Source: Actinomycetota bacterium (lineage in GTDB: Bacteria; Actinomycetota; Acidimicrobiia; Acidimicrobiales; Ilumatobacteraceae). Taken from it: a stretch of DNA of 64,000 nt. Below, in pieces: positions 51,097 to 56,220 of this stretch. The notes under the pieces were generated by a model. That model saw nothing but the letters and a program-made list of their open reading frames with translations, had not been told where the DNA came from and searched no databases. Each line of letters opens with the position of its first letter. The stretch's first letter is position 1. A program made the translations under genes and the position numbers. The stretch lies in NCBI GenBank assembly GCA_009702045.1, contig WLIV01000002.1, forward strand, positions 62,001 through 126,000, written 5' to 3'.

Positions 51097-51097
<1 letters not shown>
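49805..51097 (-). CDS. PLP-dependent fold-type-II enzyme, threonine-synthase-like, with N-terminal zinc ribbon
   Basis: 430 aa. GWMCGVCGATVDIS...RCPN gives at least three cysteines of a zinc ribbon, as in actinobacterial threonine synthases. The PLP lysine lies in KDETHNVGGSHKARH. IASCGNAAIAASTLAAAVG binds phosphate, and FVQVGGGAFAACVADG is the second glycine loop. It is not the housekeeping threonine synthase by context. ATG 51097 overlaps the upstream stop as TGATG, so it is coupled to the second PLP enzyme. The reaction is unknown. Confidence 0.8.
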
Positions 51098-52628
<1,531 letters not shown>

Positions 52629-52638
<10 letters not shown>

Positions 52639-53369
52639 GTTTGACATTTTGTCAAAGCGAGAGCCCTTTCGCGCCCATACCCCTTCACGAAGTAGTCGCT
52701 TTCGTAATCGCTAGGCTCCCACGCATCCCCGCCATCGCTGCCGATCTGTCCGGTGCCAAGCGCCGCATCATCGAGCGGCTCAAGCGCGCCGACACAGCAA
52801 CTGCGCCTGAACTGGCCGCCGAGTTCGGTCTCACCGACACTGCGATTCGCCAGCACCTCGAGGCGCTGGAGACCGCCGAACTCGTCGAGCGTGTCATCGC
52901 CCCCAGCACCGGTCGCGGCCGGCCGCCCGTGCACTGGCGTTTAGCAGCGTCGGCCAGTTCGTTGTTCGCCGACCGCCACAGCGACCTCACCGTCGAACTG
53001 ATCGCCAGCATCCGCAGCGCACTCGGCGAGGACGCGCTGCAACAAGTGGTCCGCACTCGCGCCGAGCGTCAGCTGGCGAACTACCAGAAGGTGCTCGCCG
53101 ACCTCCCCACCGTCACGGAGAAGGTGCACCGCATCGCCGAACTGCGCAGTGCCGAGGGCTACCTCGCGGAGGCCATCGACGGAGTCGGGGAGGTCACGCT
53201 CGTTGAGCATCACTGCCCCATCCGTGGTGCGGCCGACTCGTGTTCGGGTCTGTGCAGCGCCGAACTGGACCTGTTCCAGAAGGCCGTCGGCCCCGAGGCG
53301 ACCGTTGCGCGTGAGCAGCATCTGCTCGACGGCGGCCAACGCTGCGCCTACCGCATCACGCTGAAGTAA
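52629..53369 (+). CDS. SufR/DeoR-type winged-helix regulator with C-terminal Cys cluster
   Basis: 246 aa if read from ATG 52629. Residues 43-105 are a winged helix ([51 protein letters not shown]). The C-terminus has Cys196, 205, 209 and 239 (HHCPIRG, SCSGLC, QRCAYRI), the iron-sulfur/metal sensing pattern of SufR-like repressors. ATG 52629 puts the operator inside the coding region and adds 40 non-conserved residues. Starts at ATC 52725 (behind TAGGCT) or CTG 52746 would give the normal family length. I give the widest frame and flag the start as unresolved. Confidence 0.75.
52640..52656. promoter_or_regulatory. Perfect palindromic operator over the PLP-operon promoter
   Basis: TTTGACA, TTT, TGTCAAA: 7-base arms with a 3-base centre. 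It covers the minus-strand -10 candidate CAAAAT (52646-52651) and lies between the PLP operon and the divergent SufR-like gene. It is the strongest operator candidate in the window. Confidence 0.6.
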
Positions 53370-53372
53370 TCC

Positions 53373-54038
53373 TCAGACTCGCTGGAACTCCTCGGGCGCC
53401 AGCGTGCTGGGTCCGACATGCGCATCGAGCCAACCGGTGAGATCAGCTGCGTCCTGCCACACACCGATCAGCTTCGGCACCGCCTGCTTGGTGTGCATCC
53501 ACTTCGCCACCGGCCACTGCTTGCTGACGAACAACCCCTTGCGGCGCAACAGTTCGATACGCGGGTGGTCTCTGGCGAACCCACGTGGTGCGGTCTTCAA
53601 CGACGAGATTGAGCCCACGGTCAGACCCTTCTGCTCCGCCGCTCGCGCCAGCGCGACCAGCTCGTTACCCGTGGCCTCAGCATCGATTGCGGAGCGGAAC
53701 CGTTCGAGCTGATCACTACGCATGTCGTAGTAGCCCGCACCGGTCAACAATCCAGCGGCGTTGATCTGCACGTAGTACCAGGTGCCGCTCTCGCTCTCGC
53801 CTGCCGCCCCAGCGGCGTCCTTGTACGGCGTCTTGTCCTTGGCGAAGCGCACATCGCGATACGGCCGGAACATCTGCAGCGGGCCGTACTCGCCGATGGC
53901 TTCCACGAACTCCTCCACCGGCCGCTTCACCGCCTGTTCGTAGACCTGCTTGTTGGCCTGCCAGAACGGTCGCGAGTTGTCGGCCGAGAGCCGTTCATAG
54001 AAATCGAATGCCGCTGCCGGAAATCCGCTGAACGCCAT
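53373..54038 (-). CDS. DUF2461-family protein
   Basis: 221 aa. Family marks: FDFYERLSADNSRPFWQANKQVYEQ, PYRDVRFAKDKTPYKDAAGA, YYVQINAAGLLTGAGYYDM. Function is not known for the family. ATG 54038 has TAGAGT (54046-54051) 7 bases upstream. It is convergent with the SufR-like gene and divergent from the tRNA-like gene. Confidence 0.85.
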   Translation of the reverse strand: MAFSGFPAAAFDFYERLSADNSRPFWQANKQVYEQAVKRPVEEFVEAIGEYGPLQMFRPYRDVRFAKDKTPYKDAAGAAGESESGTWYYVQINAAGLLTGAGYYDMRSDQLERFRSAIDAEATGNELVALARAAEQKGLTVGSISSLKTAPRGFARDHPRIELLRRKGLFVSKQWPVAKWMHTKQAVPKLIGVWQDAADLTGWLDAHVGPSTLAPEEFQRV

Positions 54039-54045
54039 AGGAGCG

Positions 54046-54070
54046 ACTCTAGGCGCGGTGCCAGTAGCGT
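54046..54070. promoter_or_regulatory. Divergent -10 hexamers of the DUF2461 gene and the tRNA
   Basis: Minus-strand TAGAGT (54046-54051) serves ATG 54038. Plus-strand TAGCGT (54065-54070) ends 11 bases before the tRNA 5' end at 54082. Confidence 0.4.
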
Positions 54071-54081
54071 TTTGCTCCGTC

Positions 54082-54154
54082 GCCGACGTAGCCCAATGGC
54101 AGAGGCACGGCGTTTAGGGCGCCGTCAGTGAGAGTTCGAGTCTCTCCGTCGGCA
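54082..54154 (+). tRNA. tRNA with anticodon UAG (Leu-type) but short variable loop
   Basis: 73 nt. Acceptor GCCGACG (54082-54088) pairs perfectly with CGTCGGC (54147-54153). The D arm is GCC...GGC (54091-54106). Anticodon stem CGGCG/CGCCG surrounds loop TTTAGGG, giving UAG at 54115-54117. The variable loop is only TCAGT (54125-54129). The T stem is GAGAG/CTCTC with loop TTCGAGT. Discriminator A, no encoded CCA. UAG reads CUN leucine codons, but bacterial tRNA-Leu normally has a long variable arm, so identity is uncertain. ATG of the next gene begins at 54156. Confidence 0.8.
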
Positions 54155-54155
54155 C

Positions 54156-54848
54156 ATGCTCATCGATGTCCAGTTCTCATCGGGCCACAATGACTTTCCG
54201 CGCCTGCTCGACGCGGTGTTGCAGGCTGAGGCCGACGGCTACGACACCACCTGGGTGCTCGACCACTTCGACGGAGCGATGGTGGGCGGCGACCGCGATG
54301 TACTCGAGTGCTTCACGCTGCTGGGCGCGCTTGCCGTCGGGACCAGCACGATCAAGCTGGGTTCACTGGTGGCCAACGTGACCAACCGCCACGCGGCGCT
54401 CTTGGCGCTCGCCGCAAACAGCACTCAACGCATCAGCAACGGTCGCTTCACACTCGGTATCGGGGCAGGCGCCGCACCCGACACACCCTGGTCGCGCGAG
54501 CACCGCGAGCGCGGCATCCCGATTATGCCGGCGCTCGCCGATCGGCATGCCAATGTCGTACACAACATCCAGGTCGTTCGCGCGACCGCCGATCCGATGC
54601 CGATCATCATCGGTGTCAATAGCGTCGAGTTGGCGGTCATCGCCGGGCATCACGCCGACGGCGTGAACATCCGCCTCAGCAGCCCGCACTCGGGCCGTTA
54701 CCTCGCCGCCGCACGCGAGGCCGCCGGCGACAAACCATTCGACTGCAGCGGGTGGGCACCGATCGACGACACAGCGTCACAGGACAAGGCCTACGAGTTG
54801 GGCCTCGATCGGCTGATCATGTCGCGTCTGCATTCACTCGACGACTGA
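54156..54848 (+). CDS. LLM-class oxidoreductase, short form
   Basis: 230 aa, about 60 residues shorter than usual. VLQAEADGYDTTWVLDHFDG, KLGSLVANVTNRHAALLALAANS, SNGRFTLGIGAGAAPDTPW and HADGVNIRLSS place it in the luciferase-like monooxygenase fold, probably F420 or flavin dependent. The ATG lies two bases after the tRNA discriminator. There is no room for a promoter or ribosome site, so expression probably depends on tRNA 3' processing leaving a near-leaderless mRNA. Confidence 0.8.
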   Translation: MLIDVQFSSGHNDFPRLLDAVLQAEADGYDTTWVLDHFDGAMVGGDRDVLECFTLLGALAVGTSTIKLGSLVANVTNRHAALLALAANSTQRISNGRFTLGIGAGAAPDTPWSREHRERGIPIMPALADRHANVVHNIQVVRATADPMPIIIGVNSVELAVIAGHHADGVNIRLSSPHSGRYLAAAREAAGDKPFDCSGWAPIDDTASQDKAYELGLDRLIMSRLHSLDD

Positions 54849-54854
54849 ACGCGC

Positions 54855-55457
54855 TCAGCCGGCACGTAGGGCAGCGACCAACGACTGGAACGCGCGCCCA
54901 CGGTGCGAGATGGCGTTCTTCTCGTGGTCCGACATCTGACTGAAGGTACGTTCGTTCGGCGTCCCGTCGGCGTCGTGGGAAGCGATGAACAACGGGTCGT
55001 AACCGAACCCGCGATCACCCCGCTCCTCGGTGGCGATGCTGCCTTCGCACACACCCTCCACCGACAGTTCGCGACCATCGGGCCACACCACCATCACGAC
55101 CGTACGAAAGCGAGCGGAGCGCGTGTCCGCGCCAACCATCGCGTGCAGCAGCTTTGATCGGTTCTCCGCATACGTCGCGTTCGGCCCGGCGTAATACGCA
55201 GTGTCGACACCGGGGTCGCCGTTCAGCGCGTCGACGAACAGACCCGTATCGTCGCTGACGGCCGGTAGCCCACTCGCCGCGCAGATCGCAGCGGCTTTCA
55301 ACCGTGCGTTGCCCTCCAGCGTGCCGGCGTCCTCCACGACCTCCGGCACGCCATCAGGGCGCGGCAGTAAGTCCACGACGCCCGCGAGGATGGCGGCGAT
55401 CTCCGCCACCTTGTGCGGGTTGGCCGACGCGCAGACCAGGCGCGGCACCTCACTCAT
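54855..55457 (-). CDS. rdgB: dITP/XTP pyrophosphatase (RdgB/HAM1)
   Basis: 200 aa. Opens MSEVPRLVCASANPHKVAEIAAIL; GNARLKAAAICAASGLPAVSDDTGLFVDAL and GFGYDPLFI, NAISHRGRAF are the family motifs. It hydrolyses non-canonical purine triphosphates. ATG 55457 is four bases after rph's stop; rph-rdgB is a common operon. Confidence 0.95.
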   Translation of the reverse strand: MSEVPRLVCASANPHKVAEIAAILAGVVDLLPRPDGVPEVVEDAGTLEGNARLKAAAICAASGLPAVSDDTGLFVDALNGDPGVDTAYYAGPNATYAENRSKLLHAMVGADTRSARFRTVVMVVWPDGRELSVEGVCEGSIATEERGDRGFGYDPLFIASHDADGTPNERTFSQMSDHEKNAISHRGRAFQSLVAALRAG

Positions 55458-55461
55458 CGGT

Positions 55462-56220
55462 TCAGCGTCCCAACACCTTGGGTGTCGGCGGTGTCGCCAG
55501 CACGTGCGCCTGCAGGTCGATGATCTGCGCGAGGCCGCCGGTGGCCAGACCCAGCAGTTGGTCGAGTTCGTCGCGGCTGAACGCTGCACCCTCGGCCGTG
55601 CCCTGCACCTCCACGAACTTCGGCTCGACACCGGGCTGGCCCAGCACGACAACGTTCATGTCGACCTCGGCGGTGCTGTCCTCCACGTATGGCAGGTCGA
55701 GCACCGGCACACCCTTCACGATGCCCACGCTGATCGCGGCGCAGAAGGAGTGCAACGGGTGCTGCTTGATCTCCTTCAACTGCACCAGCCGCGTGAGTGC
55801 ATCGTGTAGTGCCAAGTAGCCGCCACAGATGCTGGCGGTACGAGTGCCGCCATCGGCCTGCAGCACATCGCAGTCGACGATGATCTGCCGCTCGCCGAGC
55901 AACTTCATATCGCACGCGGCGCGCAGCGACCGGCCGATCAACCGCTGGATCTCGACCGTACGCCCACTCTGCTTGCCCTTGGCAGCCTCGCGATCAATGC
56001 GCTCAGGAGATGCTCCGGGGAGCATCGAGTACTCGGCCGTCACCCAGCCCTTGCCACTGTTCTTCATCCAGCGCGGTACACCCTCATCGATGCTGGCGGT
56101 GCACAACACGCGGGTCTTGCCGAAGCTCACCAGCACGCTGCCAGCAGCCATCTCGGTGTAGTCACGTTCGAAGGTGATCGTGCGGAGTTCGTTGTCGGCG
56201 CGGCCATCGGGGCGGGTCAT
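55462..56220 (-). CDS. rph: Ribonuclease PH
   Basis: 252 aa. It trims tRNA 3' ends phosphorolytically. [48 protein letters not shown] and [15 protein letters not shown] are signature segments; [16 protein letters not shown] carries the catalytic region. ATG 56220 has a GAAGGA site upstream. It is first in the pair with rdgB and follows murI by 34 bases, as in mycobacteria. Confidence 0.97.

What the first reader, a model, noticed from the sequence alone, without database searches (positions are those of the whole stretch)
54082..54154. tRNA with leucine anticodon UAG but a class I (short) variable loop
All four stems pair well and the anticodon loop TTTAGGG places UAG at 34-36. The variable region is only five bases. 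Bacterial tRNA-Leu carries a long variable arm, so this gene breaks the rule. It may be a non-standard leucine tRNA, a tRNA charged with a different amino acid, or a tRNA-like regulator.
Basis: partly seen in the sequence, partly recalled or inferred. Interest (0 to 1): 0.72.

Follow-up and report, generated by a model that had tools for sequence, protein, structure and literature searches.

The report
Short-armed leucine tRNA, sole CUA reader
This is a real leucine tRNA gene that lacks the long side arm that textbooks give bacterial leucine tRNAs; in this bacterium and about half of its examined family it stands where relatives keep the long-armed gene, and it is the only tRNA found for the leucine codon CUA.

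Summary
In detail: window 54082-54154 (+) is a 73-nt tRNA with anticodon UAG, a 5-nt variable loop and A73. Of 45 distinct tRNAs read from its genome, only the four long-armed leucine tRNAs and this one combine A73, A14, A15, U48 and the leucine-type D-arm. No long-armed Leu(UAG) was found, so this is the only CUA reader found. CUA still means leucine: 56 of 86 aligned CUA codons match Leu in a relative, against 66.9% for CUG. Exact patterns in 221 family genomes give 109 with the short-armed gene, 62 with the long-armed one, none with both. Both forms share a neighbourhood, and a LeuRS tree needs at least six switches. Short-armed Leu(UAA) and Leu(CAA) show the same exclusivity in 149 genomes of the phylum (loops read), and phages carry such tRNAs. 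Reassignment, pseudogene and regulator readings are disfavoured. Charging by LeuRS and the route of replacement are inferred. A 2023 review passage says leucine tRNAs carry the long arm everywhere except animal mitochondria.

The parts
54082..54154 (+). class I (short variable loop) tRNA-Leu(UAG) gene, 73 nt, CCA not encoded (next bases C, ATG)
54091..54106 (+). leucine-type D-arm: 3-bp stem GCC/GGC, C13.A22 mismatch, loop with A14 A15, GG, C, A20a, GA, as in the long-armed tRNA-Leu genes of the same genome
54115..54117 (+). anticodon UAG (reads CUA); followed by G37
54125..54129 (+). variable loop UCAGU, 5 nt (long-armed Leu(UAG) genes of relatives that were read: 11-15 nt); last base U48 faces A15
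54154..54154 (+). discriminator A73, chief leucine identity base
   Evidence: identity set from PMC9976931 passages
54065..54070 (+). probable promoter -10 box TAGCGT, starting 17 bases before the tRNA; TANNNT in -24..-7 in 14 of 16 short-armed and 19 of 24 long-armed loci against 156 of 21,039 background windows
   Evidence: not tested by experiment
54156..54848 (+). luciferase-like (LLM) monooxygenase gene, one base between tRNA position 73 and its ATG; neighbour shared by short- and long-armed loci
53373..54038 (-). DUF2461 gene, upstream neighbour shared by short- and long-armed loci
54855..55652 (-). rdgB/Ham1 gene, near tRNA-Leu(UAG) also in 5 of 6 genomes read from other families of the order (long-armed form)
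51097..52647 (-). PLP-dependent enzyme (PALP) gene, neighbour shared by short- and long-armed loci

Best explanation
It is a working leucine tRNA and the cell's only found reader of CUA. SHOWN by sequence: a conserved, covarying cloverleaf; no other UAG-anticodon leucine tRNA found in the genome; CUA sites match leucine sites of a relative; the leucine identity bases are kept; the gene lies where relatives have the long-armed Leu(UAG) gene, and no genome examined was found to have both. INFERRED: the ordinary LeuRS, which in E. coli relies on A73 and the tertiary core (A15-U48, G18G19, A20a) and not on the anticodon or the long arm, charges it with leucine; the charged tRNA decodes CUA on ordinary ribosomes; and short-armed genes replaced long-armed ones (or the reverse) at this locus repeatedly, as members of a wider lineage of short-armed leucine tRNAs found in Actinomycetota and phages.
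For: (1) 45 distinct tRNAs in the 99.45% complete genome: long-armed Leu CAA, CAG, GAG, UAA but no long-armed UAG; pattern searches for it also fail. (2) Only the five Leu tRNAs of 45 carry A73 + A14 + A15 + U48 + Leu D-arm, matching the published E. coli set (passages). (3) CUA: 56/86 Leu with X-masked query in 149 non-overlapping ORFs, CUG 66.9%, CUC 67.0%; Leu beats the next amino acid (Met) by 73 log units (first pass 134/214). (4) Exclusivity: 61 relatives, 17 short, 36 long, 0 both, 8 neither; 221 family genomes 109/62/0 both, 50 neither, 30.6 both expected if independent. Of 79 good genomes 39/32/0; of the 8 left, 4 have short-armed variants, 2 long-armed variants, 2 none found. Loop lengths were read in 42 of the 109 (all 5 nt) and 30 of the 62 (11-15 nt). 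(5) Same neighbourhood. (6) One LeuRS-strength match per tree genome in a capped list; the tree needs at least 6 changes of class; no LeuRS column separates the classes beyond shuffles.
Against: No charging, expression or ribosome data. Six changes on the tree cannot tell gains from losses, and a LeuRS tree stands in for a species tree. The minimum-energy fold mis-draws the D-arm. On core columns the gene is about as like the long-armed UAG genes (mean 0.71) as short-armed CAA (0.73) or UAA (0.68) genes, so descent from the short-armed lineage rather than local conversion is not proven. Three of 16 short-armed and 6 of 24 long-armed loci show none of the four marker neighbours in the short stretches read. 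Fisher expectations ignore relatedness.
Confidence: 0.92

Rival explanations
1. CUA reassignment: the class I body means another synthetase charges the tRNA, so that CUA means another amino acid, as with the yeast mitochondrial tRNA-Thr(UAG).
For: Class I body with UAG anticodon, and no competing Leu(UAG) found. Precedent in yeast mitochondria (passage).
Against: CUA columns match Leu like the other leucine codons; Leu is best by 73 log units. Leucine identity set complete. The next best hit of the short-armed Leu model in the genome, tRNA-Arg(UCU), scores 57.7 bits against 103.1 (the model was built with this gene among its rows), so it is no close copy of another isotype.
Confidence: 0.02
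2. Local conversion: the short form arose from the resident long-armed Leu(UAG) gene by loss of the arm and compensating core changes (positions 9, 12, 13, 23, 26), without import.
For: Same locus, same flanks, same anticodon; core identity to long-armed UAG genes mean 0.71, best 0.77.
Against: The same D-arm signature is found with UAA, CAA, CAG and UAG anticodons in many Actinomycetota and in phages, which favours one lineage. At least six changes on the tree would need the same change set, or its reversal, many times.
Confidence: 0.3
3. Accessory or phage-remnant tRNA, or tRNA-like regulator of the adjoining LLM gene, not a core decoder.
For: Phages carry class I Leu(UAG) genes; only one base separates the tRNA from the LLM start codon.
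Against: No second UAG reader found in the genome; 0 of 221 genomes with both forms; the long-armed gene abuts the LLM gene in the same way in relatives; no other tRNA in the 64-kb window.
Confidence: 0.03
4. Assembly gap: the long-armed gene exists but is missing from the draft genome, and the short one is extra.
For: The genome is in 56 contigs.
Against: 99.45% complete; 0 of 221 genomes have both, including single-contig genomes G025 and G032 with the short form only.
Confidence: 0.01

Closest known systems
Long-armed (class II) bacterial tRNA-Leu(UAG)
   Same: Anticodon, A73, A14, A15/U48, D-loop with A20a, 3-bp D-stem, chromosomal place
   Different: 5-nt variable loop instead of 11-15 nt; A9, C12-G23, C13, A26 core instead of G9, G12-C23, A or G at 13, G26 in the family's long-armed genes
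Short-armed tRNA-Leu(UAG) in a phage-like tRNA cluster of the Mycobacterium mucogenicum clade (PMC6582537, passages read)
   Same: UAG anticodon with short variable loop in an actinobacterium
   Different: There it is an extra gene in a cluster thought to be horizontally acquired, beside a normal long-armed gene; here it is the only one found, single, at the locus of the ordinary gene
Phage short-armed tRNA-Leu genes: Gordonia phage GodonK, viral contig L322
   Same: Same D-arm signature and UAG anticodon; GodonK 82.8% identical over the 85% of the gene that matched; L322 core identity 0.83, with the T-stem and loop unchanged
   Different: Phage-borne; GodonK's sits in a tRNA array; acceptor stems differ
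Animal mitochondrial tRNA-Leu
   Same: Leucine tRNA without a long arm; the human one specified essentially by A73 and A14 (PMC9976931 passage)
   Different: Organelle; here a bacterium with a full-length bacterial LeuRS
Yeast mitochondrial tRNA-Thr(UAG) (PMC7609411 passage)
   Same: tRNA with UAG anticodon that takes over CUN codons in the absence of tRNA-Leu(UAG)
   Different: There it carries threonine and has an 8-nt anticodon loop; here CUA stays leucine and the loop has 7 nt

Membership tests
tRNA (Rfam RF00005) | Cloverleaf scoring above the gathering score | tested here: met
   54.1 bits against 29; covariation
Leucine isoacceptor | Leucine anticodon (NAG or YAA) | tested here: met
   UAG
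Leucine isoacceptor | Bacterial leucine identity set: A73, A14, A15-U48, G18G19, A20a | tested here: met
   set taken from passages of PMC9976931
Leucine isoacceptor | Its codon is read as leucine | tested here: met
   56 of 86 CUA sites Leu, like CUG; by alignment, not by peptides
Leucine isoacceptor | Charged by LeuRS | not testable with these tools
   needs an aminoacylation assay
Class II tRNA | Variable region of 10 nt or more (PMC7609411 passage) | tested here: not met
   5 nt
Phage or prophage tRNA array | Several tRNA genes or phage genes close by | tested here: not met
   single tRNA in 64 kb; of ten ORFs scanned between 48.3 and 59.8 kb, eight match families not particular to phages and two match none; the rest of the window was not scanned
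Reassigned CUN tRNA | Codon columns match another amino acid | tested here: not met

The most novel reading that the evidence does not exclude
Short- and long-armed tRNA-Leu act like exchangeable alleles of one core locus. A phage-borne lineage of short-armed leucine tRNAs has repeatedly displaced resident long-armed isoacceptors (UAG here, UAA and CAA elsewhere in Actinomycetota), with the same LeuRS serving either form. Escape from toxins or nucleases that read the long arm, or from mischarging by SerRS, could favour the swap (speculation).
Probability: 0.3. Interest if true: 0.75.

Novelty: new variant of a known kind. Interest (0 to 1): 0.6.

Why it matters
[quoted passage not shown] Here a family shows repeated in-place switches of the only CUA tRNA found between the two structural classes, with sister genomes in opposite states. 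That gives natural pairs to test directly what the long arm is for: LeuRS, SerRS avoidance, modification, toxins and phage defence. It also matters for annotation, because isotype checks that expect the long arm could misname these genes.

Tried and rejected
Reassignment of CUA: tested in two passes and rejected. The second kept 149 non-overlapping ORFs of 393 at 40% identity and 80 columns or more.

Copy of another isotype with a mutated anticodon: rejected; the next best match of the short-armed model in the genome is tRNA-Arg(UCU) at 57.7 bits against 103.1 (this gene was among the model's rows), and the identity set is that of leucine.

LeuRS adapted to the short form: no LeuRS column separates the classes beyond label shuffles (best 0.60; shuffled median 0.53, 95% point 0.67).

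Core identity as a guide to origin was inconclusive. In that call the 5-nt loop of the genome and viral sets is nearly forced by the search pattern; the family sets are free of this. Pairwise global identity of flanks had too high a baseline to use. The neighbourhood comparison has no formal chance control.

The patterns do not reach the variable loop, so loops were read afterwards: in 27 further family short-armed genes (27 of 27 at 5 nt), in the 33 places not read before (30 at 5 nt, 3 at 6 nt, all A73) and in 20 long-armed places (11-15 nt). One of the 33, in G323, is called tRNA-Phe(AAA) by ARAGORN with a shifted anticodon loop; I count it as UAA. Long-armed genes found by the phylum patterns were read in only a few places (8, besides those of this genome and its near relatives).

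Literature: searches gave one paper describing a short-armed bacterial tRNA-Leu(UAG) (PMC6582537, passages) and one implying some short ones in Mycobacterium tuberculosis (PMC11541572, passages). I found no account of a short-armed form as sole isoacceptor or of in-place exchange; most papers of subscription journals are not held, so this is no proof of absence.

Rows dropped: one search matched 20 of 61 genomes; G056 and G057 (short-armed UAA) and G055 (tRNA-Asn) are not counted as short-armed UAG. G016 (gene cut by contig ends) is counted but missing. Of the 8 'neither' in the 61, G037, G040, G045, G058 and G060 were not searched further. G004, G006, G008 and G009 lack a LeuRS match over the cut-off and are not in the tree; G011 was not asked for; G028's LeuRS is split and only its larger part was used.

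Full report
WHAT IS THERE. Window 54082-54154 (+) is a 73-nt tRNA gene: ARAGORN calls tRNA-Leu(tag) and Rfam RF00005 matches over its full length with 54.1 bits. The anticodon loop is UUUAGGG, the variable loop UCAGU, the discriminator A73; CCA is not encoded. In an alignment of 17 short-armed leucine genes (16 distinct; own, relatives and one phage), 99.7% of cells in the 20 cloverleaf pairs are standard pairs and 13 pairs change on both sides, with 0 of 500 shuffles as high. A TANNNT box starts 17 bases upstream; such a box lies in -24..-7 of 14 of 16 short-armed and 19 of 24 long-armed loci, against 156 of 21,039 background windows. So the gene is real, selected and probably transcribed from its own promoter.

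IT IS A LEUCINE TRNA. The genome is 99.45% complete; RF00005 finds 45 matches, and 45 distinct tRNAs were read. The other leucine tRNAs are long-armed CAA, CAG, GAG and UAA; no long-armed UAG was found by the family model or by patterns. Of the 45 only the five leucine tRNAs combine A73, A14, A15, U48 and the D-arm AA..GGYAGA with a 3-bp stem. A review gives A73, A15-U48, G18G19 and A20a as the E. coli leucine determinants and the long arm and anticodon as not crucial (PMC9976931, passages). Charging by LeuRS is therefore expected, not shown.

CUA STILL MEANS LEUCINE. About 0.86 Mb of this genome (795 kb of stretches and the window) was compared with 0.8 Mb of G035, a family member with the long-armed gene, with CUA masked as X in the query. 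In 149 non-overlapping ORFs, 56 of 86 CUA codons (65.1%) align with leucine, against 66.9% for CUG, 67.0% for CUC and 65.5% for UUG; leucine explains the CUA columns better than the next amino acid, methionine, by 73 log units (first pass with overlapping ORFs 134 of 214).

SHORT OR LONG, NEVER BOTH. In 61 relatives a DNA search and a pattern search found the short-armed UAG gene in 17, the long-armed one in 36, both in 0, neither in 8. In 221 family genomes exact patterns gave 109 short, 62 long, 0 both, 50 neither; independence would give 30.6 with both. In the 79 genomes at least 90% complete and at most 5% contaminated the numbers are 39, 32 and 0, leaving 8. Looser searches of those 8 found short-armed variants in G021, G181, G190 and G197, long-armed variants in G024 and G233, and none in G026 and G232. 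The other 42 'neither' genomes were not re-searched. The patterns stop at the anticodon, so loops were read in samples: 42 of the 109 short (15, 27) all have 5 nt, and 30 of the 62 long (18, 12) have 11-15 nt. Fisher tests ignore relatedness.

SAME PLACE, MANY SWITCHES. Short- and long-armed genes sit among the same genes: DUF2461, a PALP enzyme, an LLM monooxygenase and rdgB. At least one of the four lies within the stretches read (1.9-6 kb) in 13 of 16 short-armed and 18 of 24 long-armed loci; in some the tRNA is flipped relative to rdgB. In both forms the LLM start codon can directly follow the tRNA...GGCAC|ATG in G000...CGCAC|ATG in G028. rdgB is near the long-armed gene also in 5 of 6 genomes read from other families of the order. 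On a LeuRS tree of 30 genomes (15 short, 15 long) the label changes at least 6 times even if only starred branches are trusted, for instance between G002 and G013 and between G001 and G003. LeuRS does not track the class: no column separates the groups beyond shuffles.

A WIDER LINEAGE. In 149 genomes drawn from the phylum, 35 have a short-armed leucine tRNA by pattern. By anticodon, short, long and both: UAA 23, 57, 0; CAA 11, 92, 0; UAG 5, 120, 0; neither pattern matched in 69, 46 and 24. All 39 short places were read: loops of 5 nt, three of 6 nt; ARAGORN names one of them (G323) Phe. So short-armed leucine tRNAs here look like core isoacceptors, not extras. Phages carry relatives: Gordonia phage GodonK has a UAG gene in a tRNA array, and viral contig L322, with ThyX- and MazG-like ORFs by my reading of the translations, has a UAG gene that differs from this one mainly in the acceptor stem.

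HOW IT MOST LIKELY WORKS. LeuRS binds A73 and the elbow and does not need the long arm; the charged tRNA then reads CUA like any other. The swap at one locus is most simply explained by replacement with a gene of the short-armed lineage, moved between cells directly or by phages, but core identities (mean 0.71 to long-armed UAG genes, 0.73 to short-armed CAA genes, 0.68 to short-armed UAA genes) do not rule out local conversion. Why a cell should gain is open; toxins that read a long variable loop, such as MenT3 on tRNA-Ser (PMC11541572, passages), or confusion with SerRS are possible pressures and are speculation.

WHAT IS KNOWN. PMC6582537 (passages) notes a short-armed tRNA-Leu(UAG) in a phage-like tRNA cluster of mycobacteria that also keep the normal gene. 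PMC11541572 (passage) names tRNA-Leu-2, -3 and -5 of M. tuberculosis as having a long loop, which implies short ones. [quoted passage not shown] The host is probably of the Ilumatobacteraceae (Acidimicrobiia), inferred from near-identical genes in MAGs titled Ilumatobacteraceae and Acidimicrobiaceae; the window's own record is unnamed.

VERDICT. Observation confirmed; a genuine leucine tRNA of a non-textbook structural class, sole CUA reader found, in place of the usual gene. New variant of a known kind.

Noticed in passing
window 54154-54156; also L083 (G028) and L092 (G003): The start codon of the LLM monooxygenase gene lies directly at the 3' end of tRNA-Leu(UAG), in short- and long-armed loci alike, so 3' processing of the tRNA would leave an almost leaderless mRNA.
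   Followed up: partly
G032, G025, G029, G026, G101; L481 (G026), L485 (G021): Other family members have a short-armed tRNA-Leu(CAA); G032, G025 and G029 have it together with the short-armed UAG gene.
   Followed up: partly
L477-L479 (G181, G190, G197) and L549-L555 (genus g51): A second short-armed Leu(UAG) type in genus g51 with variable loop GTGTT or ATGTT and A9 or G9, resembling the Leu(CAA) gene of Gordonia phage GodonK (L093:2692-2766).
   Followed up: no
L322 around 2303-2375: Phage contig whose Leu(UAG) gene equals that of family member G019 (L037) except for the acceptor stem.
   Followed up: partly
L174 (Myxococcales MAG), L106, L108, L122, L164, L171: Short-armed leucine tRNA signatures in contigs titled as other phyla; whether they are prophage or core genes was not examined.
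   Followed up: no
L460 (G024), L475 (G233), L586 (G316): Long-armed Leu(UAG) genes with GGCATAC instead of GGCAGAC in the D-loop.
   Followed up: no
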